The position numbers and the translations under genes are program-made. A stretch of DNA of 64,000 bases, from contig OZ017795.1 of NCBI GenBank assembly GCA_963969395.1, positions 25,525,063 to 25,589,062 on the forward strand. Reading direction: 5' to 3'. This stretch comes from Pseudoscleropodium purum. Its lineage: Eukaryota; Streptophyta; Bryopsida; Hypnales; Brachytheciaceae. Every line of letters begins with the position of its first letter. Within the stretch, counting starts at the first letter, position 1. Below the pieces are notes generated by a model. It ran no database searches and was not told where the DNA came from. It worked only from the letters and a program-made list of their open reading frames with translations. This document shows positions 2,096 to 62,616 of the stretch, piece after piece.

Positions 2096-2096
2096 C

Positions 2097-10167: not shown

Positions 10168-10329
10168 CTCAAAAGGAGACGAAATAGCAACTTTGAAATA
10201 CACACAACACCATCACATTAGTAACAATTTCAAAGTTATATGCAAATGCACAACTTCCCAGCAAATTGAATTGAAATTAGACCTTCCAACACAAAAAATC
10301 CAAGACAATAGAAATGCCAAACATTGAGG

Positions 10330-10973: not shown

Positions 10974-11143
10974 TGGCCTCCGGTCAAGAACTCTTACAAA
11001 AAGTGTTGCCACCTAGGATGCCATGTCATTTTTTCATCCATACTTCAAATTCTCCACCGGACAAGAGTTGGCCGAGTGTAAACCCACTCCGGTCAAGAAC
11101 AAGATTTGCTCCAATCATATTGCTCCATTTTCCTAGAATTCTT

Positions 11144-11180
11144 GACCGGTGCACTTCTTGACCGTAGTCTAAACCGGCCC
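11144..11180 (-). repeat. Right TIR of the PIF/Harbinger element
   Basis: Begins GACCGGTGCACTTCTTGACC and ends AAACCGGCCC. It is the reverse complement of 6316-6352 with few differences and is followed directly by TTTTA. Confidence 0.92.
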
Positions 11181-11185
11181 TTTTA

Positions 11186-14100: not shown

Positions 14101-14797
14101 TTAAAAAAAAATCAAATTTTTTTTGCATTTTATAATTAAAAGAAATAATGACAACAATCGTCTCTAGACTACTTGGGGAACAACGCTAGAAACACTTAGG
14201 CCTAGACGGCCCTCCAGATCCCACAAAAAACATCTAATGTCTTTTCAATTGGGGGATTTGAAAAATAATTTTATGGAACCAATAGAAAACTTTGAGATTC
14301 AATTAATTTTTGAAACAAAGATCATAAATATTTGAATTGGAATGTAGATTCAAATTAATATGAAAGTTGAAAGGGTTCACTTTGCATCCATAGGGCTAGC
14401 ACAAAGATGAATTGAACATTGGTTCTAAGTATTCTACTTGAAAGCCTTAAATACATACTAGTTCATCTAATACACAAGATTTACATTAAAAAAAAATTCT
14501 CATGAGGTATTAAATTGATGTTTAATAAGACTTCAATTTTGAGTCTCATAACTACACAAGAAAAAAGGCCAACTTCTGAGTCTTCCAGAAATTGGTAATT
14601 TTTGTGTAGAGTGGATCATGTTTGCGGACATGAAAATTATCAAATGGATGGATGGATTATCACATGGTGTGGTAGCTAAATTTTTGTATTAATTGCTCTC
14701 AAGAGAAGACAAAAGTAGCCATTACAACATTAGCTTAAGTAGTTTCAACTATAGTTGTCCAAAGAGTTACAAGGGATGGAAGGTTGTTTTCTATATA
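11186..14797. other. AT-rich intergenic DNA, no gene recognised
   Basis: The longest open frames are short and lack domains. It contains an AAAAT microsatellite near 12597-12621. A degenerate direct repeat of about 35 bp is built on ATAAAAACTTTGAA(A/G)TTCAATA (about 12075 and 12240). Nothing else is supported. Confidence 0.55.
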
Positions 14798-15026
14798 AAT
14801 TATTAGAAATCAGTACAAAAGAATAAACATTCTAAATGATGGTTTTGTGTTAAATTGGAGATTTTGGGCTGAAACTAATTCAACCAATGTATTTTAAAAT
14901 AACCCAAATTTAACAAAATTGTGTTTAACATAGTATTGAAACCAATACAATTGCATTAAAAATAATGAAAATTTAAGACAAAATCATCATTTGGAATGAT
15001 ATTTTATGTGTCGATTTCTACTAGTG
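14798..15026. mobile_element. CACTA-like MITE (229 bp)
   Basis: The right end is GATTTCTACTAGTG, whose complement CACTAGTAGAAATC is the classic terminal motif of CACTA (En/Spm) elements. The left end AATTATTAGAAATC is a diverged copy. The arms continue inward for about 55 bp (left CATTCTAAATGATGGTTTTG, right its complement with few changes). There is no coding capacity. I could not see a clear 3-bp target duplication, so the exact left boundary is tentative. Confidence 0.6.
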
Positions 15027-15084
15027 ACATTATAGTGTGAAACCAATTACAAAGCATGCATCTCTTAGCCAATGGAAGCCTATA

Positions 15085-15273
15085 CACGAAGAACCTCTCT
15101 AAAGCAATAGAGTTGGGACTAGTTTGACACATTTCATTAGAGAGGTTATTACATTAGAGAGGGGCACTTGCAATCATGATGTTTGTATGTGGCTTGATAT
15201 GGGTCTGTCAATCAATATTTCCTAATAAAGCTTTATTGGCTTCTAGAGTATTGAATTAGAGAGGTTCTACTTG
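15085..15273. mobile_element. pogo/Emigrant-like MITE (189 bp)
   Basis: The TIRs are CACGAAGAACCTCTCTAAAG on the left and the complement of TTAGAGAGGTTCTACTTG on the right, flanked on both sides by TA (15083-15084 and 15274-15275). The terminal pattern CA..AGAACCTCTCTAA..CAATA resembles the Emigrant/Lemi family of plant pogo-type MITEs, which also insert at TA. There is a third internal copy of the TTAGAGAGGTT block (about 15140). No ORF. Confidence 0.75.
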
Positions 15274-15275
15274 TA

Positions 15276-18200
15276 TTATCTATACTTATACATTATGTAC
15301 ATATATACATACTTTATGCCAACAATTGAATGATAAAGTAAATGAACTATTTGTACTTTGTGGCAATATAGACAATTAAGGACTAGCCACAACAAGCTCT
15401 GGCAATCAAAGAAATGGAAATTGTCCTAGTAGCAACAAGAGCTTATGGAGGTGGCATACATTTTTGTAAGGATGTAGAAACATTAAGTAAGTCTAATTTA
15501 GTTCCAAATAAACCATCACTTAATGACATTCATGTAGCAAAGTTGCTTTGAGAGATTCCTCTATTAAGATAATCTAACCATATATGGGAGAATTTGGTAA
15601 ATTTTGAGAGAAATTTTTCTAATGATAGAAAGTAATGGTGGAAAAACTTGAGATTTGGAAAGTATTAATTAGAAGACTTGCAATTTTATTTCACAAGCCT
15701 CACTTTAGACCTAGAGCAACGCTAGCAAAATGACGGTTTAATTGATAAATGGGCCAAGCTTTATATATTCCACTAAAGAGAACATCACATTATTCATTGC
15801 ATGGTATATATTCTTTTCACTTTATTCTTTCCAATTTACTTTACATAATTATTCAATTGATGCAACAAAGATACAAATTTCTAACTTGATACATCTTGTA
15901 CAACATCTCATGGCAAAGTAATTTTTATAGTTTGTGAAAAAATATAGTAGCTTGAATGTGTGGTCATGTTAAAGTATCAAGCACAATCGTTGTGCAGTCA
16001 CATATTATAGACATACTCAACATTCTTGTGGAAGAATAAAAAAAACTGTGTTGCTCCAAATTTATGAGCATATATATATATATAAATCGAATACCATTTT
16101 TAGAACAAAATGATAAAAAAAATCCAATAAAGCAACATATGTTGATATATGCATTAAAGACGCAATTCAAAAATGTTGAGAACAAGTCCAAGAATCAAGT
16201 TCAAAGGCTCATTCAACTTGTGAGGTCCAATTGTGATAGAATTGATAGCCACTGAATACCTAAATAGTTGGTAATTACAAATGATGTCCACATTGAAGTT
16301 GAATTGACCAATGAAGAGGAAATCACCCTTGAAAAATAATTGTGATCCTTTTTATCATCACATGAAACCATACAAAATATTGCAAGTACATTGATTTTCA
16401 AAACTACCATTTTTTGTTCTTGTTGATCTATATACAATTGTGAGATAATGAAAACATTTCAAACCTCTAGTTACATGGGCATACATTTCATACACACTTG
16501 CATCTAAATTGCAAAAGTTGGTTTTTTGTTAGTAGCAACATTGTCCTTGACTATTTACATCACAAAATTGTTTGTCATTTCAAAATTGAAGGTAAGTTAT
16601 ATCTTGCGTCTCAAACCAATTAGTAACCATATTTCATTAACTTCAAATTCATGTTTCAAATTTTCCATCCACAAAATACTTTTGCATTGACAATTACTTG
16701 AACTTGATCAATTTTCTTCCACCTTGTTGTGAATCTATTCCTATTGTATTCAAATTTTGTATGTAAAATATACCTTCTAATGCAATAATTAAAAACCATG
16801 ATATTAGTATCATTTGTGCATCATAAAATATTCAAATAATTCAACAATTGGGCCTTTGAAAACAAGTCCATAAAAATGTATATTGGCTTGAACCATTGTA
16901 AATGAATTAAATGACTACCAATTGAAGGTTTTATAGCTATATAAAACTTAGCTTCAGGCGAAAAAATGTAAATGAAATTAGACAGATATGATCATATTTT
17001 TTCTTAGTTCTATCTAGAACATAGAGTGCATTATAGAAGAATATTACATTTTTCAACAATTAATTCCTTGTGACTTTGGGAACTTCTTGTAGCCTTGCCA
17101 ATATCAGTGTATTATATACATATAACATTGTGAATGTTGTTAAATTCAACCTAATCTTTAAAATCTCATAAGAATAAATCTTTAGTATAAAACTCCCCAA
17201 ATTTTGTATGTCAATACATCATAGTTGAAAAAATTTGAGCAATGAAATATGATATTAATTAAGACTTGAGAAAAAACCTCACAATTGCAAGCTAATTGAA
17301 TTGGGTCATTTGTTGAGTACTACAAAAGTTGATGGAACATGTATGCATGCTCAAATTTGCACCTACTTCACTCTTGAACCACCGCCAATTTCAAAGTTCA
17401 AAATTTGTGTTCTAGAGGCTTTGTACATACTTTCTTTCTTGTATTTTTTTTGTTTTTCCAAGCATGCCCTCCTCTACCATTTGGTTTTAGGGTGATCCAA
17501 CTACCAATTTTATATTTGGTAAATATAAAATGACTATCACTACTCTAAGATGTAAACAAAGTAATACTTTTGAATACTACTTGAAGGCTTCTTCATCTTA
17601 CTTTGAAAGCAAAAGTAAGAAAAGAGTTCAAGTTATTAAAAGACAATTGTGAAAAAGAAAACCTAGTGTGCAATAAAGATACTGTAGTCAAGAGATAAAA
17701 ACAAATAGAAATAAAGAAGTGCCAACATAAATCTCACTTTAAGAACTTGTCTCACAATCATTGTTTTTTGTTTCATTGCCCATTGGTTCACAATCCTTGC
17801 ACATTTAACATACACTAAAAATTGAACAACTCAAATGTCTTTTATCAAGGTCAAAATCTTGTATGTATGGAATTCTAAATCTTTTAGTCTTGTAATGCCT
17901 CCAAATCTTTTGTTATATGGTCTTCAATAAATCATGGATACATCTAAGCTGCAACCTTTACTTTTGAATTGAAATGCACTAAAATTTGTGGTTATGTTTA
18001 TGGATAGATTTTATGGCATAAACTTTACAACATTAGAAGGGATTTCAGGCTAAGGGAAGGCTATTCAAGGCTTGTTACCTTGGCCATTCCTGCACCAATA
18101 AAAGAACACAACTTTGTTAGATTTTTACAAATTAAAATAATTTTTTTTTAAATACAAAAAGAAGTTGATTTTTTTTCAAAAATGACATGGCACTGTCTTG

Positions 18201-31861: not shown

Positions 31862-31869
31862 CATCAATC
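31862..31869. repeat. Target-site duplication, left, of the 11.5-kb element
   Basis: CATCAATC, identical to 43361-43368, directly abutting CAGGGTTGAC. Confidence 0.85.
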
Positions 31870-31870
31870 C

Positions 31871-32085
31871 AGGGTTGACACAACGTCCGGACGTTCGGGA
31901 CGTTTGGACGCGGACGCTGTGTCTGCAGCGTCCGCTGACATTCGCGGTCCCGGCGGACGCAGCGTCCGCCGGGACAGCCCCGTCCGCCTGTCACCCCATC
32001 CGCCCCGCCCGTCTGCCCCGTCCGCTTTGACGACCCTATTTCCCCCGACCGCCCTACCCAAACTGCCCCGCGGTCCCTCCCTTAA
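31871..32085. repeat. GC-rich terminal island 1 (left arm)
   Basis: GC-rich sequence dominated by GTCCG, CGGACG and CCGCCC words, with short internal inversions such as GGCGGACGC/GCGTCCGCC (about 31953-31970). The outer 60 bp pair with the right arm (43195-43350). It is probably where the element's transposase binds; no coding content. Confidence 0.65.
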
Positions 32086-32473
32086 TCTTTAAACAATTAA
32101 ATGTTAAATAAAGTGCAATGGCTCACGATTTGTTATTAAAACAATGTCTCTTATAAATTGAAAGATTATAAAGTTTGACCATGAGTCCATGATAGTCTTG
32201 AAACTATGAAAAAATTCCAATTCATTTTCAAAAGGCAAACTAAAAAAGTTTGTGACTTCAAATATATATATATATACTATTTAAAAAATCAAGATCAACA
32301 CAAATACAAACATAATCAATATGGGCAAAATGTATTCAATTTAATATAGAATACCATACATTGTATACATTTGGCTAATTGCACATATAATTTTTTTCAT
32401 TCCAATTCTATATTTCTAAACTAATTTTTAATGCCTATATAACCTATTCAACTACTACTTCTGCACTACCAAT

Positions 32474-33967
32474 CTAATATAAATGGCGGAAATGTTCATC
32501 TGGCATCGACCAACGATATGTATTAGAAAATCGCATAATCACATGGGCCAAACTAGTATTTTCATCGTCAGTCTTCGAAGAAATGCGCTTCAAGTAAGCA
32601 TAAAACACTTTTGCAAAGTCATGAAAGGCAAATTGTGTCGCACTAGGTGTTTTTCGTAGCAAGTTGAAATACGCCTCTGACATGTTGTTTCCGTTCATCC
32701 GCCGAGCAATTTTTCAAATGGCATACTCTTTCGACTTATGTGAATACATCGGAATGACTTCCACATCTGCACCTGCTTTATGCAAATATGCAATACGTGG
32801 ATCCACCCACCATCTCCTCTGCAAAGTTTGTTTCATCTCAATTGCTGATGTGAATGTGTACAAAGACTTCATTGGCTGAGAAGCTAAGGTGGTCATGCCC
32901 CAATCGCAAACTCCAATGTACACACGTGACTCATCTTCTGGAAAATGCAATAAGATGTTGTCCGGAGAAAGATCATTGTGCAAATGTCCAGCAAGATGCA
33001 CTGCATACATTATATGCATAAAAGCCCATATCAACTCTGTGCGCTTCTTCCAATATCGCCCTAAACGGTGAGCTTTTACAACCTCCTCTTCAGTTGGATT
33101 TGTATACATTAAACGGATTTGAATGTTGTTTGGATAGTCCTCATCCATATTCAACATTTGTCGAAGAGTTCCACCATTCCACCAATACGCATAATCTTCA
33201 CACGTTGTTCCGTACACCATAGCAAACCGTATCACTCCCGCGTGTGGAATTCGAACAGCCATTGATTCGTTTTGATGTTCTAACTTTGCAAGATCGGGTT
33301 GAGTTTGGTGGTGAATGGATTTCTTTGCCGCAAACTCCCAATAAGGAAGTATTCCTGGACATCCTTCAATACGAACCTTTCAAATCGTTGCATATCCACC
33401 TCTTATCGTTCTATCATCAACAACAATCACGCGTACTGTATTTAGAAGTGCTATGAGGTGCCGTTTGTTCCTTCTCGCTTCAGCAACTCCATCATTGCTT
33501 TTCCACCAACCAATTGAACTAACTCGATTGTGCTTTTTGGCGAATAGAGCACATCGCCCCCTAAACAAGTCCCCTTTCAGAATCACTTCTTCAAACTGGG
33601 CGTCATTGGGTCGATACTCCTTGCCATATTTAACCAAAATGACTTTGGAATTCCACAAAGCGTCATGAACCTTGTTTTCCAAACATTTGGTGAAGTACGT
33701 TTTATGCATTTCGTTATGCCATTTCGCCACATTCAATGCATTTAACAACATCTGTGTCATGTCTACCTTGAATTTAGACACGCACTCCTCTTGATATCTG
33801 ATGTACTTATTGTCTAAAGACAATGTTGTTTCCGATTCATAAAATTGAACGATGCACTCGATCATGAATTTCTTGCATTCTTCCGAAGGACTTTAACGAG
33901 CTACCTCCAAGTTCGATGGTCCCTCTCCATGTTTTAGCTTCGCAACCTTCTTCTTCCCGTTCGGCAT
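32474..33967 (-). pseudogene. Protein-kinase-like gene, broken by three stops
   Basis: One minus-strand frame of 498 codons runs from ATG 33965-33967 to a stop at 32474. It is interrupted at 33893-33895 (TAA), 33380-33382 (TGA) and 32714-32716 (TGA). Kinase landmarks are a Gly-rich loop RGGYATI (codons about 189-195) followed by KVRI, a probable ATP-binding Lys in FAAKKS (about 215), the catalytic loop HNDLSPDNILL (Asp about 332) and the metal-binding CDWG in place of DFG (Asp about 355). The N-terminal 180 residues are unlike any family I recognise. The second stop falls inside the Gly loop, so this copy cannot make a working kinase. All three stops are one C-to-T change from CAA or CGA. It is cargo of the 11.5-kb element; a GC-rich island lies 190 bp upstream. 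Confidence 0.75.
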
Positions 33968-34156
33968 CGTGACAAATGAAATTGATATAGATCAAATTTT
34001 TTAATTTGAAATTGAATTCACGCGCAAGTACTCAAAAAATTGGCAAAAAGGGGGCCCCAATAAACCACTCTTGCCTTGCCTCGGAAAAGAGTCAATGGAG
34101 GATGAACCACCAAGCTCTCTGCTCCACCTTGCATTCACAAGGGGCAAAGCAAAAGT

Positions 34157-34560
34157 GACAATGCGGACGGCCCGTCCGCCCCATCGGACGGGCCGGGGGA
34201 GGCGGACGCATTGGCCGTCCGCCTCCCCGAAACCCTCGAGCCCCGTCCGCCCGATCCGACGGGCAGTGGCGGACGACCCCAAACCGTCCACTTGATCGGA
34301 TGGGCCGCGGCTGGCGGACGCATCAGCCGTCTGCCTCCCCGAAACCCTACAGCCGCGTCCGTCCGATCGGACGGCCACGGGCGGACAAATCTGGCGTCCG
34401 CCCGATCCGACGGGTAGCGGCAGACGGCCCCAAACCGTCCACCCGATCGGACGGGCCGCGGGTGGCGGACGCATCGGCCGTCTGCCTCCCCGAAACCCTC
34501 GAGCCTCGTCCGCCCGATCGGATGGCCACGGACGGACAAATCAAGCGTCCACCCGATCCG
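34157..34560. promoter_or_regulatory. GC-rich island 2, tandem repeats upstream of the kinase-like gene
   Basis: About 400 bp of degenerate tandem repeats. GGCGGACGCAT followed by CGCCTCCCCGAAACCCT-like sequence occurs near 34199, 34313 and 34463 (spacing about 115 and 150 bp), with CCGATCGGACGG-like palindromic blocks between. It lies directly upstream of the minus-strand kinase-like gene start and is the likely promoter region. Open frames inside it on both strands are repeat artefacts. Confidence 0.6.
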
Positions 34561-35156
34561 ATTTATTTTCCATATTTGAAAATAGAATCTAAAGAAGAAC
34601 CACTAATTGTCTAATTTGGGCATTTCTTCATACGAATAAGAAATCATTTTAGTTTTTAGCAATCGTTGAATGAAAAATAAAAAAATTTCAAATATTCAAA
34701 TAATTCAATCTTTCATAAATTAATTAGAAATACATTTATACCATTTACAAGTTTCTAAATGTAATAAACACACAACAATAATTTCAAAATACAGACCATG
34801 CTAGTACATATTTAACCTCGAATGCTAAATTCAAAAATAGACATAATATGGCTCTTACAAAGTTACATTTCTTCTTCATATTTTTATTATTTATCAAAGT
34901 CGCTTATAGCCTTATACATCAACGTTATTATAAAATAATACAATGATGTCTTCAACAATATGTTTGCCTACATACATACTTGGTGTACACTATTACACAA
35001 CACTTTTTGAAAAAGTGAACAAAATTGTTGTTCAAAATTGTTCTATTCATTTAAAATTTTGTACTATTTCTACCAATCTAGTGCTCTATACTTGTCGTGA
35101 GAGTAAAAATGAGAAAATTGAGCAAATACATGCTCACTATATACTTGTATGTTTTT
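34561..35156. other. AT-rich spacer inside the 11.5-kb element
   Basis: Lies between island 2 and the stop codon of the SYG-repeat gene. It is AT-rich with no supported gene, and is probably the 3' untranslated region plus spacer. Confidence 0.5.
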
Positions 35157-36224
35157 TTATTCAAAATCTGAATCGGACTCAAATTGTTGACCGCTGCCTC
35201 TTCTTTGTACTCCAATGAACGGACCACCTCTGTAGTTTCCGAGATATCTACTCGGTGCACCTCCTTGTCCATAATTTGAACCTCCAAAAGTAGGAGGAGG
35301 AACCAGAGTAGTAGGCTCTGATACTCTTTCATTTGAAGCCCCATAATAAGAGGTCCCATGATGCCCGTATGAATCACTTCTAGTTAATCCCAGATAGTAT
35401 TGGGCGCTTCCGTGAAGAGAGCAACTATACTGCGGGGTTACATGGCTTCCTCCATTACCTTTGGAGCCCACTTGAGTGGGCGTCGTATAATATGAACTAG
35501 ATTCAGTAGACCTACCATAGTGCGTGTTGCCATAGCTACCTGCTCCACCTTGAGAGCCTATTTTAGGGGGAGTGCCATAATGAGAACCAACTGCACTTGA
35601 ACCACCATAATGCGTGGAGCCATAGCTCCCTCTTCCACCTTCATATCTATTTTGAGGATCGTAACCAGAGTATGAACCACCTCTTCTATGTTCAGATTCT
35701 CGTGTTCCATGTTCATGTCCGTAGGACCCACCATGCCTATCTTGTCGTCCACGATCTTGAAGGCTTCTGCGTGTTGCCTCTTGCATTTGTTGTTCGAATT
35801 CAATTTGTTCTCGTTCTTCTACCCGCTCGTGCCTAACTCCAAATGTGACAAACGCTTGCATATCATCGTCATCATCGTCATCTGTCCACACATCTTCAGC
35901 ATCTCGTAGAACAACTGAAGGTTGTTGTAGATAACCTTGATTGGACCACTCTGGCATGCAATCGCTTGCGCCCCTCCACTGTATATCTATAACGGCATCC
36001 GTGCACGTATAGTTCTCCACATTGCGACCTGTAGCGGTACGCCAAAGTTTTTGAATGTGAGTCATTTTTACATACTTCTTGAACATTAAGTAATCCCACA
36101 CTCTTGTTGGTTCCTCTTCCCATCCCGGTTCACCCACACACAATGGATCGGCCCAAGCATCCCAATCGAACAATTGGGGTCTTCCCTTTCGACTACTTTT
36201 TTTGGGTGTTCTATTTTTCGGCAT
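35157..36224 (-). CDS. SYG-repeat, prion-like protein of the 11.5-kb element (355 aa)
   Basis: Uninterrupted frame from ATG 36222-36224. The N terminus is basic (KKSSRKGR, possible nuclear signal). Residues 34-61 (GWEEEPTRVWDYLMFKKYVK then MTHIQKLW) match the start of the RING gene in the same element. An acidic run of seven Asp (115-121) and a Glu/Gln-rich helix (about 133-152) follow. Then comes a low-complexity region rich in Gly, Ser and Tyr with three 30-residue repeats starting GSYGSTHYGG (199), GSYGNTHYGR (229) and GSHVTPQYSC (259). Such SYG-rich tails occur in phase-separating RNA- or DNA-binding proteins, but the function here is unknown. It is the only cargo gene without a stop. A GC-rich island starts about 140 bp upstream. 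Confidence 0.75.
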   Translation of the reverse strand: MPKNRTPKKSSRKGRPQLFDWDAWADPLCVGEPGWEEEPTRVWDYLMFKKYVKMTHIQKLWRTATGRNVENYTCTDAVIDIQWRGASDCMPEWSNQGYLQQPSVVLRDAEDVWTDDDDDDDMQAFVTFGVRHERVEEREQIEFEQQMQEATRRSLQDRGRQDRHGGSYGHEHGTRESEHRRGGSYSGYDPQNRYEGGRGSYGSTHYGGSSAVGSHYGTPPKIGSQGGAGSYGNTHYGRSTESSSYYTTPTQVGSKGNGGSHVTPQYSCSLHGSAQYYLGLTRSDSYGHHGTSYYGASNERVSEPTTLVPPPTFGGSNYGQGGAPSRYLGNYRGGPFIGVQRRGSGQQFESDSDFE

Positions 36225-36364
36225 GATGAAGTCGAAGCAAAGAGAATGAAACTATTAGAAAGCTTAAGAACCAAAATTTTGATTTAATTAATTAATTAAA
36301 ATTTTATAAGCGTGAACTTTTTGAAAATTTGTAACAATCTGACAACAATCGTTCACTCAAAGCG

Positions 36365-36608
36365 AAAGGGGCGCGCAAAGCTTTCAAGGCACTGGTCCGC
36401 CCACTCCAAAAGAAAACGATTGTTCGGAATGAGCCATCCGCCTCCCCATATATATATGCAAACGCCCCGAGGCGGACGTCCAGATCATGCGGACCAGATC
36501 AGTTCGTGTGTCAATCGGACGGCCGTATCGGGGCGGACGGGGCGGACAGGGCGGACGCCCGATCGAACGAACAGGGCGGACGGAGCGGACAAGGCGGACG
36601 GCTCATCT
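36365..36608. promoter_or_regulatory. GC-rich island 3, upstream of the SYG-repeat gene
   Basis: CGGACG and GGGCGGACGG words are dense, especially 36520-36600, where GGCGGAC recurs every 10-20 bp. Its position just upstream of the minus-strand SYG-repeat gene mirrors islands 2 and 4. It is a likely promoter region. Confidence 0.55.
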
Positions 36609-39010
36609 TAAACCCTAAACCTAATGAAGCAAATTGTTCTTTTTTCAAAATCTCACAGTATAGATGTTTAACCCCTAAAGTTCTTTTCACTAAAAACACT
36701 TCAAAACTGCAAATATCAAGTCTTAGAAGAAAAATACTTTGGGGCATATGTAACTGTAGGATCTTGTAGAGTTGTAGTAAATTAGTTGGAAAAGATGTGG
36801 AAAAAATTTTAGACAAATCCACCATTTGGATTGTAAGATATTAGATATTGAATGTTTCATTTAAGAGGGCTACTCAATTATGTCCATTAATGAACAATTG
36901 GTAGACTAACAAACCTAACTTAGCATGTATTTCAATATTTGTTGCAATTGTTTTAGGAATATTATAACATAACACTATTATAATATTCTTATAAATGATA
37001 TAGTACTAAATCATTTCAAAATCAACAACATTCGAATACAATCTGTCAATCTTGTCTTTCATACTCCTTTAATGATATATATATATATATAAATATATAC
37101 ATACATAAAATATATTAAATAAATCAACATGAACAAATCAATGATTATATATTTCATAGATCTATTCTTCATCAATCAAATAAGAGTGCATGTTCAAATA
37201 TAGACAAAGATGGTTTCTCCATTTGTTCCCAAAAAATAGATAAACAAATAGAGAAAGATATGAAGTGAATGTTACTTGGAGAATTGGAACGAAAGAAATT
37301 GAAGTACTCAATTGCATTTTATTAAATTGGAAAATTGCATGTGGATGGCATGAATTAATCTTTATAGATGCTAAACTCATACGAGTTGCATTTCAACATT
37401 TATGATTTATGCAATTGATTGAATTGAAAGCTCTTATAATTACATTTTCAAATTTTCGATTCAATCATTCAAATTTGCAAGAGTGATTTATGATAGATTT
37501 ATAACTTTAAATGTGAAAGCATTGAATGCCTTTATGCGTTTGTTCATCAATATATTAATTTTAAATAAATAATATATATTTTTTATAACATATGCATAAA
37601 CCATTGCATTAAAAAAACAAAAAACTAAGAGCCAAGCCAAATAGGCTGGTCAAATGAAGAGAACAAGAGAATAAGAGCCCTACGAGACAGAAAACAAAGG
37701 AAAATAAAGAAAATATCAAAAGGATTCAAAGGAAGGAGCAAGATGCATTCTTGCAAGACCGTAGAATACATAATGATTTCAAAATCCAAACACAAATATA
37801 TTTTCTATTTCAATGAGAGCCAAAAATGAACTACCCTGCTCTCAAAGATTGTACAATGTACACGTTATACAAAATGAACATATAACAGAAAGAGTAGAAG
37901 ACATTGTTTATCATGATTGAAAACTGAAATGATTTTTTTTTATGTAGAATATTTTATGAAATGTAACAATATATTTAATTATCATAGTAATTGGTAGAAA
38001 TCTTTGTGCAATACATAGAAACATTTCATTCATGTGGAGTTTTTTCATTTATTTAGGATTAAAATTGAAGTATTATACTCTACAAAGTACAAACCAAAAA
38101 CAATACTATATACCTAAGTTCAAAAGTTTGCAATTGTTTCGTGAATTCATTTTGAAAACTCAAACAAAGAAATATTTTATAATCAATATCTTGTTCATTT
38201 AAATCATTTCAAAATTTGAATTCCGAATTCAATTTCTATTTATAATAGAAATTATGTTTGTCAATTTTTTAGATCTTTAAACAATGAACCCTCTTTTTTA
38301 AAATTAATATTTAAAAACATCTGAAATAAGAATATTGGAATTACCCTTCAAAATAAATATAGCACATGTATAAATGTATAATGTATTCTACTCAACCAAC
38401 TCAAGTAATGAATTTTTCTATGTTTTTAAGGAAAAATATAGCCATACATGATTTGAAAGTTAAAACATTGATTCTTTTTCTTTGTTTTCAAATCTAATCA
38501 AAATTTCATTAAAAAATATGAAAGACTCGATGTTCATTTGAAGATCGTGATGCACTTTTAATGAGAAATCACAACCTTTCATTAAATATCATGAGGTTGA
38601 AATCCATTAAACTATTATTCTAATTATGTATTGGGGCTTTTTTTTTAAATTTCATTTGCTTACAATGAAAATGGAATTGATTATTTCTACAAAACATTTG
38701 ATTTCCTAATGAACTTTAAGAAAATCCCCACCATCTTCAGATCTTCTCAAAACCTATTTAGAGGGATAATATCAGTAAATAATCCAAACATATTCAACTT
38801 AACCATATTCCCCTCATTCGTAAAACAATTTAGGGGAGAAAAGAAAAGGTTTAGGGTAATTAGGGTAATTAGGGTATAGGGTTTAGGGTTTACATTTAAA
38901 AAAAAAAAAATGATAAATCAATTACATTGATCCTCATTTAGCAGTGATTATTAGGCTGTTTTATTTTTGAAATGTTACCGCTCTTTTTGAATAATAATGG
39001 CCTCATAGAA
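36609..39010. other. AT-rich 2.4-kb spacer between the divergent cargo genes
   Basis: Lies between island 3 and island 4. No gene is recognisable. It contains an AT microsatellite (about 37074-37105), a TTAACCCCTAAAG-like piece near 36668 and a telomere-like tract (38850-38892). Confidence 0.5.
38850..38892 (+). repeat. Interstitial telomere-like tract
   Basis: Consists of TTTAGGG units (the plant telomere repeat) mixed with TAATTAGGG variants, about five units in all. It lies inside the 11.5-kb element shortly before GC island 4. It is too short and degenerate to mark a chromosome end. Confidence 0.7.
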
Positions 39011-39295
39011 TGCACCAGTGGACAGCTGGGCGGACGCCGTCGACGGTCAGTGTTTAAGTGGGGCGGTCGGCGTGTTCAAAGCGCGGATGGCGTCAGAAGG
39101 CGGACAGTGCTGACAGTCCGGGTGGACGCGGCGGTCAGATGGGGCGGTCGGTCGGGGCGGTCGGACGGGGCGACGGGCGGACGGCGCATCCGCTGCCGAA
39201 GCGGACGTCGTCGGTCCGCGCGGCGGATGCGAGGTTCGGGGCCGCTTCGCGCGGTCCGGGGCAAGTCCGACGGCGGATGGTTATAAGGGTGGAGT
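39011..39295. promoter_or_regulatory. GC-rich island 4, upstream of the RING gene
   Basis: Dense GGGCGGTCGG and GCGGACG words. It ends 205 bp before the likely start codon of the plus-strand RING gene, the same arrangement as islands 2 and 3 on the other strand. Confidence 0.55.
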
Positions 39296-39499
39296 GACTT
39301 TCATTTCTTCTCACTTCAATTCTCCTTCGGTGCCAAGTTGGATGTGCTACTATTGCTTTATGCGCTAGTTGCTCCTACAGGGTGGAGAGTTGGGGTCCTC
39401 TATCTTTTGTTACTGTGTTGCGGTTGATGCCATCACTTTTGACTATCACGTGAGATTTTTTTATTCACTTCAATTGGTTATTGAATCCAATTGACAATC

Positions 39500-42400
39500 A
39501 TGAACGGCGAAGGTGATCGAAATATGGATGGGGTGACTCCGGGAAGCGAGCCAAGAAAAAGAGCAAAGTAAAGGAGGCTACACATGACTTTCGGCTTGAC
39601 ATTTTAAATGGCCCTACAATTAAAGCAGAGAACGGGTGGGAAGATGAAGATGCGGAGTATTGGACATAAAAAATGTGCAAGACCTATGTTAAAATGTACC
39701 ACATTGACAAGTTGTGGCCTCAGGAATCGCACAAGAGTCATACACGGGATTTTTGTTGTAAACCATGGACTTGCAACAACAAACATTTTGTCCATCGATT
39801 TGAGGAGGTGTGGCGTATTCTATTCGGAAACAAGTGCAGAAGCAAAGGCTATATTAATTATAGCATGGCGTGTATGGTTTACGTTGAACTTATATTAGAG
39901 CGCAAGATCGATTGGAGCACGTTTCCGACAACAGCAGCTTGCCCACTTCTACTTGAAGCCAATCAAAAGGACATTCCCGACTTGTACAATTCAGAGGGAG
40001 AAACAAAAAAAGTATTAAAAAATACTATTGAGGTGAAAACGGATGGTGTGGAGAAAGCCTCAAATGTTGAAGAATTACGGTCTGTACAATCTTCAACAAA
40101 AGCACTCAATGAAAGCTCTTCGAAAAATGTGGGGAAAGATGTGGAGAAAGATGTAGAGGCGTAGGAGGGTGAAGTCTTTTCCACAGCTCCAACGCGTTTG
40201 ACCTTTACACCAAATGTTGCGGCACAAACGCAAACGGAGTTTGTAAACGAAGGCAAGGTTTGCACGGAACGTAGGGAAACTTCGAAAAGTAAAGTAGACG
40301 AAGTCTTGGCGGAGAAAGTGGCAAAGGTTAATGCTACAATTGATAGTCTGATAGCCAATAATTGTTTTGATAGTTTGGTCTACAAATCTTCGTCTATGCA
40401 TCAAAGCATTGAATCTAGTCCAGCGTTAAGTTTAGAAGACAAAGTACATACGCCTCGTGGACAAGGCGTGACGATTGATAATATATCCTCATTATGGAGT
40501 TCCGAGCGTAAAAGGTGGGCGGAGGAGTTTCCGTTTACAGAGGCATTGCCAAGTCCTCTACATTGAACCTTACAAGACTTGTCTAATCCAAAACAATTGG
40601 AAAATCTTTTGAAGCTCTTGGTTCAGTTTGCTAACCTTCATGAAGAAATAGGCGGATCGTCTAATCCCGATGATGGTGCTACTGTTGTTCCAATGAGTCC
40701 ACTTGTAGATCCAAAGAATGTTGCACATATACTTGATACAGCTTTCAAGATGACAATGTCAGCTGAATTTTTAACGAGAGTTGCTCCGACTTTTATGAAT
40801 TTGGCCAAGGAGTTTTATTTCATGGCACCAGAGATGTTGAAAGGTGCTATAACATTTCAGAATCTCACGAAGACTTTCGGACCACTTTTCGAAGAAAGAG
40901 ATGTTCACATACTACAATTGGTGGAATATGAGAAAAAAATTGCTGACCTTGGAGGAGTGAAAGCAAGGTGCAAAGTGTTGGAGTTGAAATTAAAGACTTC
41001 GGAGAGTGAGGTTGAACATTTAAATCAACAATCATCGAGGCAAATGGAGGAGTTGATGAAGATGCGTAAACGGATTGCTGAATTGCAAGGGACCTCCAAA
41101 AATCCAAGTAAGGTTGCAATCTCACCAGTGATTGTACTCGGAGACAGTCAAGAGACTCAAGAGAGTGAAAATAAGCTCTCTCTTTCTTTTGATAAGGCCG
41201 AAGCAAGCGACAACCCTGCCATTGTGAATGTACAAGAAAGCCACGACATGAGCATGTTAAAAGCGACACAACATCCATCAATGGAAAAACTTTCATCCGT
41301 TTACGTGAATGCGGAGACGCAAACGGAGAGTTGTGACTTTGAAGAGTTGAAGCATAAATTGGAGGAGGCAATTGTAGCAAAATGAATTGTTGAATCCAAG
41401 TTGAATCGATTGCAATTGTGCTTGAATTTGGAGAAGTTTATGCCATCTAGCGGCTTGGAGTCTCGATGGTTAGCATGGGTACAAAGACTCCAAGATAGAC
41501 CCTTTGTAGTATCTCGAGCAATGGCAGGTCTTCAAACATTTCCAATGAAGTCGAATGAAAATTGCGATGCCATTCAAAGCTCTTTGAGTTGGTTCAAGAC
41601 TATGTTTGACCAACATCCTTCTAAGAGATATACGGAGATCACATGTTGGGGAGATATGGATGCCATGTTTGAGCAGTTAAACCACACAAAGAAGGACCAA
41701 GCTCCACCCATCAATTGAGCCTTGGAAGTAGAGGAAGGATGGGTCCCTTACAACACACTTTCAGCACACATCAATGTGAAAGACAAGCGAGTGGTGCATG
41801 CTTGTGATTCAGCCTCTCCAATCTTGGATGGTTGTTGTAGCCTTTGCCAAGGCCTCTTCGGACCGGAAGGTGCGGTAACCATGGGCCAATGTCGCCACAC
41901 TTTCCATGTCACTTGCATTGTGAAAGCATCACTCATTCATTCGGTGTGTGCCGAGTGTCGTAGTCCATTGAGTGCTAGGTTCTACGAAATGTTTGGTATC
42001 TTGGAAGCTATGCCTCTAGGCCACGAGTACAATCGTTGGAATCTTTCTCTTGATCTAGCGCCGTACAAATTTCAAAATTATCAACATTGGAGGAAGCCAA
42101 TCCGGTGGAATGCAAATGAATAGAGGCATGATTTGTACGAGGAATCTCAGCAACCATTGGATTTGGATGTGTGGATGATTCAAAATAATGAGGTGGAATT
42201 GCGGGTTCAAGGAATCGTAGATGACGCGGCACGTGAAATGTTTTGTCGCAACATGGGGGGACACTGGAGCTTGCAACACGAAAAGTTCTTTCGTTTTCCA
42301 GATAAAAAAGTGGAGAGAGGACTAGAAGACAGTTGGGTGGAGGTGAACCATGGAAAAGAGTTCAATGAGCAATATAAGGCATACGACCACACCCTCGTAG

Positions 42401-42896
42401 GTAGGGCCCTTCTATTGTCGAAGTTGGAAGAGGCTGCAAAAGTTCGTGTTGTCTACGATACAAATGGACAAACAAGCACAGGACATTCATCTGTAGATGT
42501 GGCAGTAGCATTTGATAGGCGCATTAGCAATATCATAGGGCATTGGAAGGCTTTCCTATTGGATGGAGACTGCCTCACAGTATGGCAAGGGAAAGGAGAT
42601 GATGAAGTTGTTCAAGCGATGGTAGATCGTGTGGAGAGCAACTTGAGAACCTTGAAGGCAGACGAAGCCGATTTATCACCGAAAAGAAAACAAAAAGGAA
42701 GCGTGAAGAGGACGATGACTTCTCTCTAGAAACCAAGAAACAATTTCATAAGGTGGACATCGAAGTTCAATCTGGAGGGCGAATAGTCCATCCAAGTCAA
42801 CAACGGTCAACTCGTCAATCATCTGCTAAACTCCTCGATACAACAGATTTTCCTTTTGTTTTGGAAGAAGGTAGTGGTCCATCCGGTGGAAAGTAG
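39500..42896 (+). pseudogene. Long coiled-coil and RING-H2 gene, broken by stops and frameshifts
   Basis: About 1,130 codons, almost all in one frame, interrupted by stops at 39667, 40162, 40564, 41383, 41716 and 42121. Each stop could come from CAA, CAG or CGA by one C-to-T change. An ATG at 39500 lies in another frame (shift near 39535), and a one-base shift in the A-rich tract near 42690 leads into the terminal frame ending at 42896. Domains in order: a module shared with the SYG-repeat gene (39634-39717), a cysteine-containing segment, repeated TQTE-type motifs, a coiled coil (about 40910-41095), and a RING-H2 finger (41834-41958). The finger has CSLC, then C.H..H..C and CAEC, typical of E3 ubiquitin ligases. 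The C-terminal part (RHDLYEESQQ onward) is unfamiliar. I do not recognise the whole protein. It is cargo of the 11.5-kb element. Confidence 0.72.
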
Positions 42897-43194
42897 GATT
42901 TGAGGAGAATTTTGTTTTTTAAAAACAATGGTCCTTTCATTGTTTAAAAACAAAAAAGAATGTGAAAGATTTAGATCTTAAAATGATCGTATAGAATTCA
43001 ATAGTGATATTGGAACTATGTTTTCATGTATTTTGTTTATACATATATATTTATATATAAAGATGCTATATTTTCATTTGCGTATAAAAATATTTTTATA
43101 TGTACATCTTATTTTACGTGGATGCATTCATTTTTGATTGTGTAACATTCAAATTACATAACAATATAAAATTTTCTAATGACTAATGGCAATG

Positions 43195-43350
43195 CAAAGT
43201 CCGCCCTGTCCGCCCTGTCTGGTCTGTACGCCCGACCGCCCCGCCCCGTGCGTTCGCCTTCCGATGGCGAGAGGGACGCTGCGTCCGCTAGCGTCCATGC
43301 GTCCGAACGTCCGGAAAACGGACGCTATTTCGGGGCGGACGTTGAGATTC
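43195..43350. repeat. GC-rich terminal island 5 (right arm)
   Basis: Complementary in part to island 1: the blocks CGTCCGAACGTCCGG and GGACGCTGCGTCC match the left arm reversed. It ends 10 bp before GTCAACCCTG. Confidence 0.65.
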
Positions 43351-43360
43351 GTCAACCCTG

Positions 43361-43368
43361 CATCAATC
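43361..43368. repeat. Target-site duplication, right, of the 11.5-kb element
   Basis: CATCAATC, identical to 31862-31869, directly following GTCAACCCTG. Confidence 0.85.
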
Positions 43369-58449: not shown

Positions 58450-59290
58450 TAAACTTAAGCAACATTGCTGACAGCAGCCGTGATGTTAGTAGCATTACCC
58501 GATTTAAGGGGGTAAATTTCCACTTGTGCAAATTTCAGATGAGAGCAATCCTTCTAGGGAAAGAGCTCATGGAAGTTGTTGACGGTACTAGAGTTGAAGC
58601 CTCTAGACACTGCTGCAAATGATGTTAAAGCTTCCTGGAGAAAGAGAGACAATCCTGCAAATGATGTTAAAGCTTACTGGAGAAAGAGAGACAATCAGGC
58701 AGTTAGTCTTCTTTGCTCAGCGATAGATGAGAGTTTAATCAAAAACATTACTAGCTGTATCACGTTCAAGCAGATTTGGAACAAGCTTAATACCAAACTT
58801 AAGTTGTTCCATGAGCAAAATATCTCTGATAATATCCATACTCTCCAGCAGGATTTTTATAAGTGTACTATGCTACAGGGAGAATCGTTGATTACATCAG
58901 CAAGCTAGATATGATAGTCCAACAGTTGGCCTCCCGTGGAGACAATATTTTTAATGACCAGGCAGTGATCTCTAAAATTTTATGCAACTTACCTACTGGT
59001 TTCGATAGTATGATACCTGCATGGCGCATGCAGCCAGTAGCTGAAAAAACATTAACTAATCTCACTCTACAGCTTCTTCATAGTGAAAGTATGCTTAAAA
59101 ATAGGATCGACGAAGCTGTAGCTACCTCTGCTGCATATGTAGCTTCCTTGAAAGGAAAGACTACCGAGTATACCTTTGAGCAACGCTCTGCTAGATATAA
59201 GGAAATTAGCGATCGTAAGAAAACCAGCCCGTGTTGGAAGTGTGGCGTTTTGGGTCATTGGGGCTGAGAATGCAACGCCTTAGCAGAGCA
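58450..59290 (+). pseudogene. Copia gag, broken
   Basis: The N-terminal motif is near 58490-58575 (FKGVNFHLCKFQMR, LMEVVDGT). The signal then shifts frame at about 58580-58600 and continues as AVSLLCSAIDESLIKNI and IWNKLNTKL, and shifts again near 58880 to ISKLDMIVQQLASRG. A 42-bp tandem duplication (58614-58655 and 58656-58697) repeats NDVKA(S/Y)WRKRDN. The nucleic-acid-binding zinc knuckle CWKCGVLGHWG is cut by a TGA at 59265-59267 before its last Cys. This copy cannot make a normal capsid protein. Confidence 0.8.
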
Positions 59291-59360
59291 ACGGACTACG
59301 TATCAGCAAACTCAAATACGAGGTGATCAATCTAAACGAGGAGATAATTACACGGCATTT

Positions 59361-61572
59361 ATGGCAACCATCAATGAACCATCAGAGTCCTCCTTTTGGT
59401 ACATCGATAGCGGCTGCATCGAGCACATGACAGAAAATCGGTCGTATTTCTCAACTTATCAAGATATCTCTGCACAACAACGCTTAGTCACAGGCATCGG
59501 AGGGACTAAGCTGTTGGTTGCTGGTTTCGGTGACATCAAAATCAAGATTCTGCAGTAAGAGGGCTTCAGCTACGAATCCTCAAGGGGGTAATCCATGTCC
59601 CTACTCCTGGTCGAAATTTATTTTCATCGTATGTAGCAGTTTAAAAGAAAATTTATACGTTACACACCGATGTAGGTTGTCAAATGCTAGAAAATGGTAA
59701 CGTAATCATGACTGGCAATGTGCACAATCGCATGTATAAGCTTAATATTGAGGTCGTTTTGTCTACTGCCACCTCTTTAGCTGCTACTTCGGCATTATCT
59801 TTTGGTGTTCCTTCTACCATTGAGAGTATTCAAACGTTAGATCTCTGGCATAAGCGTTTAGCACACCTTAGTTATACTACTATACAGCAAATAGCCTCAC
59901 AAGGCATTGTGCATGGCCTCATTCTACGTGGAGGACACAAGTCTTTCTGTCCTGGTTGTGTTTACGGCAAGCAAACCTGAGCACGCTTTCTTGTCGACGA
60001 GCATCATCAACGAGCAAAATCATCGGGTGATTTAATACACACCGACCTGTGTGGTCCAATGAACATCCCTTCAGTAGGTGGCGCTCTTTACTTTGCATTT
60101 TTCAAGGATGATTATTCAGGGTTTAGAGTCAATAATTGCCTTTAGACCAAATCAGAAACACTAGACGTTTTTAAGAGGTTTGTTGGCCAGCTCAAATGTG
60201 AGACTGGTAGCATTGTCAAAATACTTAGGAGTGATCGTGGCACTAAGTACACAAGTCGATCATTCATAGAGTATCTTAGATAGAGAGATGATTAAACAAG
60301 AGCTTACTACCCCCTACAAACCCGAGAAAAATGGAGCATCTGAACGGGACAATCGGACTATTGTTGAGGCAGCTCGGAGTATGCTGCACTCAGCTCCCAT
60401 CCCCCTCCATTTTTGGGCGGAAGCCATCCACACAGTAGTCTATACCTTAAATCGCACTGCAACTGGGACTATTGAAGGGAAAACTCCGTTTGAACTCTGG
60501 TTCAAATCTAAGCCTTTAGTCTCACACCTTCGCGTTTTTGGAGCTGAAGCTTACGTCCATATTTCCAAAGCTCAACGTAAGAAATTATCACTGAAAAGTA
60601 GGAAAGGAGTTTTTCTAGGCTATCCAGCTACTAGTAAGGCTTACCGAATCTGGAACCCAGAGCTGCGACGTGTTGAAGAAAGCTGGGATGTCTTGTTCAA
60701 CGAAGATTTTGCTGTTATAGAGAATGTTGCAGACCGACCAACACCAATGCTTGATGTTCATAGCGGTACACTTCACATTGGCACAACACTAGTTGAGCTA
60801 CATGCTCAAGCTCCAGCGTATATCCCAGTCGCTCCTCGTGCTCCAAACTGCTTTCTCGACGAAGGAGTAGCAGTAGCAGGCGGTGCCTTTCCAACAGAGG
60901 AAGCAAACGAACCAATAGTGGGAGAAGATGAATTGGGAGTGAAAGATGTATTGGCAGTGGGAGTACATGGACCAACAGTGGGAGCTGATCAACTGGCAGA
61001 AGGAGCAGGTGATGATTTCGATGAAGAAGCTGTAGAGCCAATCGAAGAAGATGAACCAGTGGGAGTAGCAGGACCCAACAACCCGCCTCGAGCTCAACCA
61101 CCCCCCCGCTCGCCTTGGTGAATGGATTTATCCGATCAACCGCAACTCATACGCTTGTGTTGTAACGACATGCCTAAGAGTATGATTCGCTTGTTGCGAA
61201 TGACACCTGGTCGTTGGCAGAGCTACCCAAAAAATGCAACCTCGTCAAATGTCGATGGGTGTTCAAGTTAAAACTAGCTGCCGATGGATCAGTGGATCGA
61301 CATAAAGCATGATTGGTGGCTAAGGGTTGTACACGAAGGCATGGCATCGACTACCAAGAACCCTTTAGCCCAATGGTTAAATTTGACTCCGTACGTTGCC
61401 TTCTATCTGTTGCTGCTGCTGAAGATCTCAATATCACCTAATTCGACGTTCGCACAGCTTACCTCAATGGCATCCTTCGTGAGTTGATCTACATGCAGCA
61501 ACCAATTGGATTTGAGAACCGTTCTGCAACTCGGCAACTTGTTTGTCGGCTCAACAAAGCATTGTATGGACT
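59361..61572 (+). pseudogene. Copia pol, 5' part: protease, integrase, start of reverse transcriptase (broken)
   Basis: The protease motif WYIDSGCIEHMT is near 59398. The GAG-pre-integrase zinc finger LWHKRLAHLSY...CPGC lies in 59848-59962. The integrase core has Asp in HTDLCGPM, Asp in LRSDRGTKY and Glu in EKNGASERDNRT. It is followed by the Copia-typical LRVFGAEAYVH stretch and an acidic linker (about 60870-61080). Reverse transcriptase begins near 61200 and stops at the nested insertion. Stops occur at 59978, 60143, 61310 and 61439, plus frame changes near 59560, 60285 and 61120. At 61310 and 61439 the family has a conserved Arg and Gln. Confidence 0.85.
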
Positions 61573-62611
61573 TGTAGATGGGAATTTACTATAGATGAAC
61601 TATTGTGAAATTCCTATAGTTTAAGTTCGTTCTCAGGGAGGCAGGGTGCTATGGATAATCTTCAAAGTAATGAATCTGGTTCATGCACAATTGAAGGGAA
61701 TGGGAAATATTCACTCTTCACTCACAATAGATATTATTTTTGGTACAGGTCTTATTGATCTTTTCGTTCATCGATCAGTAGCTCCAATTGATTCTTTTTG
61801 ACACATGTTAATTTTGGCTTCTCTTCCTTCAAGTCCTTGCTTTACATTTCTACTATAGTAAATTAGTAATTCCTTCCTTAGATTCACATGCACGTTTAAC
61901 ATAATTTAATTGATTACAAAACTTACATTTCTTTCGATTTGTTTCGGACAATTCTTCACTTCCACAGAGACTTAATCTCTCAAATGCTATAGATTAACGT
62001 TCAGTCCAAAATAAAACACACCATAGCATTATACTCATCCCCATTGACACATACCACACAATTCCTCACAGGATTAAATCTATAGACCTAACACTCAGCA
62101 TCAAAGCATATTCTCACAATTGATTCACCATTCAGCACACTCACAACACATTCAAAATAATTTTGCATTATATTTCCGCATACAAATATTACAATTGATG
62201 GTCTCCCATTCCTGTCCAACTCCACTCTGTATAATCTATCGATTCAGTACAACTCAACAACCTCCGACCAACACTATAGAAAATTAATTCTCACACACTC
62301 ACAACTATCGCTCACACACTCTGCCGGCTACACCACCACGCTGGAGACCTGGATACCTTCTCCAGATTGAGCTTCAACAATTGATTGCGAATCCCTTTCA
62401 CCTTGATTCACCAGACAGTTCATAACCGTCACAATAGTTTGCATCCATTCATCCACCACAACTAACATCCATTGATAAAAGCACTGAAATTCAACTTAAC
62501 TGGTAAAAATCCAATTTTAACACCGCAAATACACTTAAAACTATAGAAAATTGAAAAATTAACAAAAATAACACTACTATGTACATTTCTACTATAGTCT
62601 ATACGACTACA
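61573..62611 (+). mobile_element. Solo-LTR-like element, family A, copy 2 (1,039 bp), nested in Copia
   Basis: Begins TGTAGATGGGAATTTACTAT and ends ATACGACTACA, flanked by the 5-bp duplication GGACT (61568-61572 and 62612-62616). Removing it joins the two halves of the Copia reverse transcriptase at KALYGL / RQSARVWNRKF. It is homologous to 48896-50219 in the opposite orientation, which shows a repeated family. It is rich in CTATAG words and has no ORF. The difference in length (1,039 versus 1,324 bp) means one copy has indels. Confidence 0.9.
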
Positions 62612-62616
62612 GGACT

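What the first reader, a model, noticed from the sequence alone, without database searches (positions are those of the whole stretch)
31870..43360. 11.5-kb element with hAT ends that carries a kinase-, an SYG- and a RING-type gene but no hAT transposase
Seen: CAGGGTTGAC/GTCAACCCTG ends and an 8-bp duplication CATCAATC. Known: these are hAT hallmarks, and hAT elements are usually 2-5 kb with one transposase gene. Here the interior has three other genes laid out in order. Inference: either a gene-carrying non-autonomous hAT, or a new element type whose own proteins are these three. This is the best candidate for an undescribed system in the window.
Basis: partly seen in the sequence, partly recalled or inferred. 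Interest (0 to 1): 0.88.

Follow-up and report, generated by a model that had tools for sequence, protein, structure and literature searches.

The report
Transposase-less copy of four-gene hAT transposon
A jumping-gene family in this plant genome carries, beside its cut-and-paste enzyme, three more genes of its own (a protein kinase, a repeat-rich protein and a RING-finger protein), which is surprising because elements of this kind normally carry one gene; the copy found here has lost the enzyme gene.

Summary
Observation confirmed. 31870-43360 is an 11,491-bp insertion with perfect 10-bp terminal repeats and an 8-bp duplication; it carries kinase, SYG-rich and RING genes and no transposase. 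It is not a chance capture: in the 313-Mb host genome the genes recur at fixed spacing (40 SYG-RING pairs 6.56-7.40 kb apart, all co-oriented), and 8 of 10 copies read at both ends have perfect 8-bp duplications. The same ends, kinase and spacer also occur with a hAT transposase (DUF659 + Dimer_Tnp_hAT) in place of SYG and RING. One locus has SYG, RING, transposase and the start of the kinase in one element; 29 of 40 scored loci keep its RING-transposase junction. So the window copy looks like a transposase-less derivative of an ~18-kb four-gene hAT. The genes share a promoter-like module (CGTCCG cluster plus telo-box, not always complete), and the cassette losses read here join cluster to cluster. 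SYG and RING share a ~105-aa N-terminal domain (E 1e-20). Divergent relatives of all three proteins exist in public data. Best mechanism: transposase acts in trans, SYG/RING bind the clusters; that binding and the roles of kinase and RING are inferred. New variant of a known kind.

The parts
31862..31869 (.). left target-site duplication CATCAATC
31870..31879 (+). left terminal inverted repeat CAGGGTTGAC
   Evidence: same or slightly changed ends in other copies
31884..32024 (.). left terminal cluster of CGGACG/CGTCCG motifs (8 sites)
32474..33967 (-). protein kinase gene (about 497 codons; frame broken in this copy, open in other copies)
   Evidence: fold
34164..34534 (.). motif cluster upstream of the kinase (16 sites) with telo-box AAACCCTA at 34342
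35157..36224 (-). SYG-rich gene; N-terminal Cys/His-containing domain partly deleted here
36473..36600 (.). motif cluster upstream of SYG (6 sites); telo-box AAACCCTA at 36610
36620..39030 (.). central non-coding spacer found in all three forms of the family, with two telo-boxes at 38877 and 38884 upstream of RING
39031..39207 (.). motif cluster upstream of RING (4 sites)
39500..42896 (+). RING gene (1132 codons in an open copy, L093): N-terminal domain shared with SYG, RING finger, C-terminal part; frame broken in this copy
43237..43241 (.). scar: the four-gene locus has about 4.1 kb more here, the hAT transposase cassette
43282..43341 (.). right terminal motif cluster (5 sites)
43351..43360 (-). 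right terminal inverted repeat
43361..43368 (.). right target-site duplication CATCAATC

Best explanation
The window element is a transposase-less internal-deletion copy of a hAT family whose complete form is about 18 kb and encodes four proteins: kinase and SYG on one strand, RING and hAT transposase on the other. It moves (or moved) by transposase made in trans by type-2 or four-gene copies that have the same ends (shown: same ends, 8-bp duplications, transposase in family members; inferred: actual trans mobilisation). The genes have a common promoter-like module, a CGTCCG cluster plus a telo-box, and both termini carry further clusters. I propose that SYG and RING, which share a Cys/His-containing N-terminal domain, bind these clusters and thereby co-regulate the four genes and assemble or license the ends. 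The RING part would ubiquitinate, and the kinase phosphorylate, the transposase or a host silencing factor (inferred; no biochemical evidence). Gene cassettes are lost by joining one cluster to another, probably in repair after excision (junctions read in two copies, process inferred). This gave rise to two common complementary forms: kinase-SYG-RING and kinase-transposase.
For: Fixed spacings and orientation: SYG-RING 40 of 48 pairs within 25 kb at 6.56-7.40 kb; kinase-SYG 21 of 28 at 2.18-2.63 kb, kinase-RING 17 of 31 at 8.95-9.65 kb, kinase-hAT 23 of 31 at 6.67-7.20 kb; left end-hAT 6 of 7 at 7.59-7.72 kb. Locus C49 (L046+L047) read directly: start of kinase, SYG, RING, hAT and right end; its RING-hAT junction is spanned in 29 of 40 scored loci, 11 stop at query 314-359, in or just past a cluster. 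Breakpoints of one type-2 copy and of the window against C49 fall in or within 35 bp of motif clusters, one of them (8170) only by its window counterpart 39119. TSDs in 8 of 10 type-1 copies; in 10 of 10 the right end lies about 1.6-1.7 kb after the RING hit, too close for a transposase; TSD in type-2 copy C41. Transposase domains DUF659 8.6e-31 and Dimer_Tnp_hAT 1.8e-9. Shared SYG/RING domain 39% over 106 aa, E 1e-20. Clusters and telo-boxes upstream of the genes. Kinase fold: pLDDT 77, kinase hits with probability 1.00. Constraint on SYG in variants shared by three or more copies: N/S 0.61 of neutral against 0.97 for singletons, Fisher p 0.010. Relatives in public data: kinase 88 of 118 candidates, SYG 11 of 2013, RING 17 of 2762.
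Against: No CpG-decay footprint at the clusters, so no sign of lasting VANC-like hypomethylation. The SYG/RING domain has no Pfam or PDB match and a poor model (pLDDT 40), so DNA binding is a guess. The kinase has DWG instead of DFG (DFG recalled), scores below Pfam's cut-off, and 4 of 18 aligned family sequences lack the Asp of HxD. The module is not always complete: the four-gene locus has one exact hexamer before RING and the type-2 copy C41 no exact telo-box before its kinase. The C49 kinase was read only at its start, and the other 28 loci with the junction were not read for kinase and SYG. The order of events rests on a weakly supported tree. Selection was tested on SYG only, with copies picked by similarity to the window protein. 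No transcript or transposition data.
Confidence: 0.8

Rival explanations
1. Chance capture (transduplication): a one-gene hAT picked up unrelated host genes and copied them as passengers.
For: hAT elements that captured a host histone H3 gene and amplified it to hundreds of copies are known in fungi (PMC6710886, abstract and passages seen). Singleton changes in SYG look neutral.
Against: Three genes at fixed places in many copies; SYG and RING share a domain with each other; similar promoter-like modules stand before the genes; shared variants in SYG show constraint; all three proteins have divergent relatives in public data.
Confidence: 0.06
2. The four-gene form is not ancestral: two separate elements (kinase-hAT and kinase-SYG-RING) recombined, or a hAT cassette was gained by an accessory element.
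For: 29 RING-hAT junctions among 40 scored loci (of 914 loose candidates), while the two shorter forms give many pairs in the hit lists. Many backbone supports of the tree are low and two junction copies (L053, L059) sit inside the type-1 clade.
Against: Junction copies are spread over the tree and have the largest mean divergence (3.85% against 2.50% and 2.88%). The losses can be read as cluster-to-cluster deletions.
Confidence: 0.2
3. A new element type moved by its own three proteins, with only hAT-like ends.
For: Many copies have open frames for one or other of the three genes, and ten copies read at the right end have no room for a transposase after RING.
Against: Copies with the same ends and spacer encode a hAT transposase, and one of them shows its own 8-bp duplication. 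None of the three proteins matches a recombinase family in Pfam.
Confidence: 0.04

Closest known systems
hAT superfamily (Ac/Ds, hobo, Tam3; plant members with DUF659 transposases)
   Same: Short terminal repeats beginning CAGGG, 8-bp target duplications, transposase with DUF659 and Dimer_Tnp_hAT, non-autonomous internal-deletion derivatives (Ac/Ds logic; recalled).
   Different: Typical hATs are about 5 kb; the discussion passage seen in PMC6710886 gives 110-7144 bp as the range it cites. Here the complete form is about 18 kb with three further genes.
hAT elements carrying histone H3 in Dothideomycete fungi (PMC6710886; abstract and passages seen)
   Same: A hAT of about 9.5 kb with an extra gene, amplified to hundreds of copies, 8-bp TSD.
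   Different: There one captured host gene, decayed; here three proteins with divergent relatives in public data, a domain shared by two of them, and a common promoter-like module.
VANDAL/VANC anti-silencing system of Arabidopsis MULEs (PMC5735166; abstract and section 8 read)
   Same: A transposon with accessory proteins and dense short motifs in its non-coding regions; VANC21 binds such motifs.
   Different: Different superfamily (hAT, not MULE; MULE recalled), different proteins, and no hypomethylation footprint seen here.
Two-protein DNA transposons (PIF/Harbinger ORF1 + TPase, PMC2836001, abstract start in the listing only; CACTA TnpA/TnpD and MuDR A/B, recalled)
   Same: Transposase plus a second element-encoded protein.
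   Different: Not described for hAT in the listings seen here; kinase and RING partners are not part of those systems (recalled).

Membership tests
hAT superfamily | 8-bp target-site duplication | tested here: met
   window CATCAATC; 8 of 10 type-1 copies; type-2 copy C41 CCTAGTAC. Misses: one copy with unlike flanks, one whose left end was not in the fetched stretch. The C49 four-gene locus could not be tested (left flank not read).
hAT superfamily | short terminal inverted repeats of the CAGGG type | tested here: met
   up to two changed bases in some copies
hAT superfamily | transposase with hAT dimerisation region (and DUF659) | tested here: met
   in family members: L096; 43 loci scored; not in the window copy itself, which is therefore non-autonomous
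hAT superfamily | transposition by the hAT transposase | not testable with these tools
   needs an excision assay
VANC-type anti-silencing system | accessory protein binding dense motifs in the element's non-coding DNA | tested here: inconclusive
   motif density 20-fold over the rest of the window, in clusters at both ends and before each gene; binding not tested
VANC-type anti-silencing system | loss of DNA methylation at the targets | tested here: inconclusive
   C-to-T decay at CpG in clusters is no lower than elsewhere in 30 copies, an indirect measure that speaks against it
protein kinase superfamily | kinase fold with catalytic K, HxD, N and D-x-G | tested here: met
   columns K216, H331, N338, D356-W357-G358 conserved over 25 sequences; Asp of HxD in 14 of 18 aligned sequences; DWG instead of DFG; fold (probability 1.00, rmsd 10-12 A); activity not testable
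RING finger proteins | RING zinc-binding Cys/His pattern | tested here: met
   zf-RING_11 28.0 bits, cut-off 27, in the window piece; 24.1 bits, below the cut-off, in open copy L093
transduplication (captured host gene) | a parent gene in the host outside the element | not tested
   no annotated host gene set; the searches list best-scoring places first, which are family copies

The most novel reading that the evidence does not exclude
A split ('bipartite') transposon: the two common forms are interdependent. Type 2 (kinase-transposase) supplies the transposase, type 1 (kinase-SYG-RING) supplies regulators that recognise the CGTCCG clusters in both, and cassettes are shuffled between them through the repeated promoter modules, much as in a multipartite virus. 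The kinase and RING ligase act on the host's silencing or repair machinery.
Probability: 0.2. Interest if true: 0.88.

Novelty: new variant of a known kind. Interest (0 to 1): 0.73.

Why it matters
hAT elements are textbook one-gene transposons (recalled). A hAT family with its own kinase, a RING protein, a second protein sharing a domain with the RING protein, and a common regulatory module before its genes would be the first of its superfamily known to me to carry a regulatory programme. The listings of eight literature searches (open-licence PMC papers only) showed no description of one. It makes questions testable: whether transposons use phosphorylation or ubiquitination against host silencing, and whether cassette loss through repeated promoters drives the formation of complementary non-autonomous forms.

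Tried and rejected
VANC-like local hypomethylation: C-to-T decay at CpG sites is about as high in the cluster windows (0.06-0.11) as elsewhere (0.03-0.15, few sites per window), so not supported. Fold of the SYG domain: model too poor, no useful match; profile search of solved structures empty; a sequence search of solved structures with the kinase was empty too. Relatives in contig collections: SYG in viral contigs none, kinase in viral and GTDB contigs none; RING was not searched there. A second hAT family in the same genome (L095, 1172-aa transposase) first looked like the missing transposase by ORF length but has no DNA match at E 1e-20 to the two family loci compared. Literature: listings showed no paper on a hAT with kinase or RING genes. 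Empty sites were not looked for. Rows dropped before counts: the tree used 43 of 49 copies (five without a match, one too short); the SYG selection test left out L033, an outlier, so 29 of 30 copies, and the Fisher test left out variants seen in two copies (71 N, 24 S, 0.93 of neutral). All copy lists are the best-scored part of larger candidate lists, so frequencies of the forms are not estimates for the genome.
Full report
CHECK OF THE OBSERVATION. The ends and duplication are as described: CAGGGTTGAC at 31870 and its exact inverse ending at 43360, flanked by CATCAATC on both sides. The interior, 11,491 bp, holds a kinase gene (33967-32474, minus), an SYG-rich gene (36224-35157, minus) and a RING gene (39500-42896, plus). 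No hAT transposase is present. The kinase and RING frames are broken in this copy; SYG is open but lacks about 65 residues of its N-terminal domain (355 aa against 420 aa in L013).

A LARGE FAMILY. Search of the own genome with the left end, SYG, RING and kinase scored 40, 114, 150 and 150 candidates out of 3253, 1148, 644 and 1319 loose ones. Open frames of 420 (SYG), 1132 (RING) and 498 aa (kinase) exist. Pairing the hit lists shows fixed order, orientation and spacing. SYG-RING lie 6.56-7.40 kb apart in 40 of 48 pairs within 25 kb, all 40 co-oriented. Kinase-SYG lie 2.18-2.63 kb apart in 21 of 28 pairs and kinase-RING 8.95-9.65 kb in 17 of 31. These lists are the top of much longer lists, so they show that the arrangement recurs, not how often each form occurs. 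Ends and flanks were read for ten copies with SYG and RING: eight have a perfect 8-bp duplication, one has unlike flanks, and in one the left end was not in the fetched stretch. In all ten the right end lies about 1.6-1.7 kb after the RING hit, which leaves no room for a transposase.

THE MISSING TRANSPOSASE. hAT dimerisation domains lie 7.59-7.72 kb from family left ends in 6 of 7 pairs and 6.67-7.20 kb from the kinase in 23 of 31 pairs. The copy at C41:18457700-18470000 (L044+L045) has the family's left end, kinase, the spacer 36620-39119 at 94% identity, then a hAT transposase and the family's right end (two bases changed in the last ten), with its own duplication CCTAGTAC. The transposase of another copy (L096) carries DUF659 (8.6e-31) and Dimer_Tnp_hAT (1.8e-9); of 43 loci scored with it, some have no stop. 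The locus C49:1612000-1630000 (L046+L047) holds SYG, RING, hAT transposase and the right end in one element, with the start of the kinase gene at its left edge. The family's left terminal sequence appears about 1.75 kb further left (L117), a distance that fits the rest of the kinase gene, which was not read; this gives about 18.2 kb. The left flank was not read, so its TSD is untested. A 601-bp probe over its RING-hAT junction was spanned in full, or but for two bases, by 29 of 40 scored loci (of 914 candidates); the other 11 stop at probe positions 314-359, in or just past the cluster. Whether the other 28 of these loci also have kinase and SYG was not read; the hit lists pair two of the 29 with SYG, one with the kinase, five with RING at 1.2 kb and six with the hAT domain at 2.4-5.8 kb.

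ARCHITECTURE. The hexamer CGGACG/CGTCCG occurs 39 times inside the element and 9 times in the other 52.5 kb, a 20-fold difference in density. The 39 sites form five clusters: both termini and 0.2-0.3 kb upstream of each of the three start codons; the transposase gene has one as well (C41 5797-5943, start codon 6262). In the C49 locus only one exact hexamer is left before RING (8074). Telo-boxes (AAACCCTA; name and role recalled) lie near these clusters: window 34342, 36610, 38877/38884; C49 785/895, 3993/4000, 7919/7926, 12347; C41 5644/5651 and 5972, but none before its kinase; outside the element the window has one. 26 of 30 SYG loci have at least one. So the four genes carry a similar promoter-like module, not complete in every copy. 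Compared with C49, type-2 copy C41 lacks the SYG cassette (854 to 4010) and the RING cassette (8170 to 12250), and the window lacks the transposase cassette (12224 to 16328). Five of these six points lie in or within 35 bp of a C49 cluster; the sixth, 8170, is 96 bp from the one remaining hexamer, but its window counterpart 39119 lies inside the window's cluster. BLAST cannot place breakpoints to the base in such repeats.

ORDER OF EVENTS. A tree of the shared spacer (1267 columns; 43 of 49 copies, labelled by the hit lists: 15 type-1 copies, 16 kinase-hAT copies, 12 copies with the RING-hAT junction) puts 12 of 15 type-1 copies in one clade (support 99), which also contains junction copies L053 and L059. 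The window, L089 and L091 fall outside it. Junction copies are scattered and most diverse (mean pairwise 3.85%, against 2.88% in type 1 and 2.50% in type 2). Many backbone supports are below 60. This fits an older four-gene form and repeated cassette loss, but does not prove it.

THE PROTEINS. Kinase: Pfam Pkinase below the curated cut-off, most catalytic columns conserved (Asp of HxD in 14 of 18), a model with pLDDT 77 that matches solved kinases with probability 1.00 and target TM up to 0.64, though with rmsd 10-12 A. RING: zf-RING_11 above cut-off in the window piece, below it in L093. SYG: no family or fold match. SYG and RING share an N-terminal domain of about 105 aa with conserved Cys and His (39% identity, E 1e-20). 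Relatives in public data (organisms not named): kinase 88, SYG 11, RING (C-terminal 432 aa as query) 17 proteins at E up to 0.001, mostly far below the identity seen between copies here, one RING piece at 95%. SYG relative P0092 finds this genome's copies of the same family at about 50-55% identity, so the gene is probably old. Their genomic context could not be read.

SELECTION. In 29 SYG copies (L033 left out) changes seen once have an N/S of 0.97 of the neutral expectation from non-coding columns, those seen twice 0.93, those shared by three or more copies 0.61 (51 N, 32 S; stops 0.43). N against S, shared against single: Fisher p 0.010. I read this as neutral decay after insertion, with SYG kept under some constraint in the copies that gave rise to others. 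The copies were chosen by similarity to the window protein, which may lower N changes somewhat. RING, kinase and transposase were not tested.

MECHANISM. Shown: same ends, same TSD length, transposase in family members, similar modules, cluster-to-cluster losses in the copies compared. Inferred: transposase acts in trans on transposase-less copies; SYG and RING bind the clusters; kinase and RING alter the transposase or host factors. A VANC-like anti-silencing role is an attractive model because VANC21 binds dense motifs in its element's non-coding DNA (PMC5735166, abstract and section 8 read), but clusters show no lower CpG decay than the rest.

KNOWN OR NEW. It is a hAT by ends, TSD and transposase. 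The closest precedent found, fungal hATs that captured histone H3 (PMC6710886, abstract and passages seen), concerns one decayed host gene. The listings of the eight searches named in Why it matters showed no hAT with a kinase or RING gene; only open-licence PMC papers are covered. I rate it a new variant of a known kind.

Noticed in passing
C49 (12.7 Mb contig of the host genome): 10 of 29 RING-hAT junction loci lie on this contig, which is 4% of the assembly (binomial p 1.2e-7). Two pairs among the ten look like inverted duplicates and the probe came from this contig, so the excess is somewhat smaller. It may be a non-recombining or sex chromosome that keeps old copies.
   Followed up: no
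host genome, for example C41:16714286(-)/16724511(+), C49:3043693(+)/3049991(-): Hits less than 60 kb apart are mostly in inverted orientation (SYG 2 against 0 direct, RING 10 against 0, kinase 11 against 1, hAT domain 10 against 5), several with identical scores: palindromic duplications or assembly fold-backs.
   Followed up: partly
L095 (C48:7715900-7720400): A second hAT family with a 1172-aa transposase (DUF659 + dimerisation); 24 places match its whole length, the query itself and 23 others at 96-98% identity, several without stops.
   Followed up: partly
window 7433-8863 (+) and 9718-10212 (-): Long frames resembling a PIF/Harbinger transposase and its Myb-like partner (by recall; no search made).
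   Followed up: no
window 58863-63706 (+): Frames resembling a Copia-type retroelement (integrase and RNase H regions, by recall; no search made).
   Followed up: no
L042+L043 (C44:22558600-22576600): A type-2 copy that lacks SYG and is interrupted by another repeated element, present twice in opposite orientation (about 3.6-5.4 kb and 12.0-13.7 kb).
   Followed up: no
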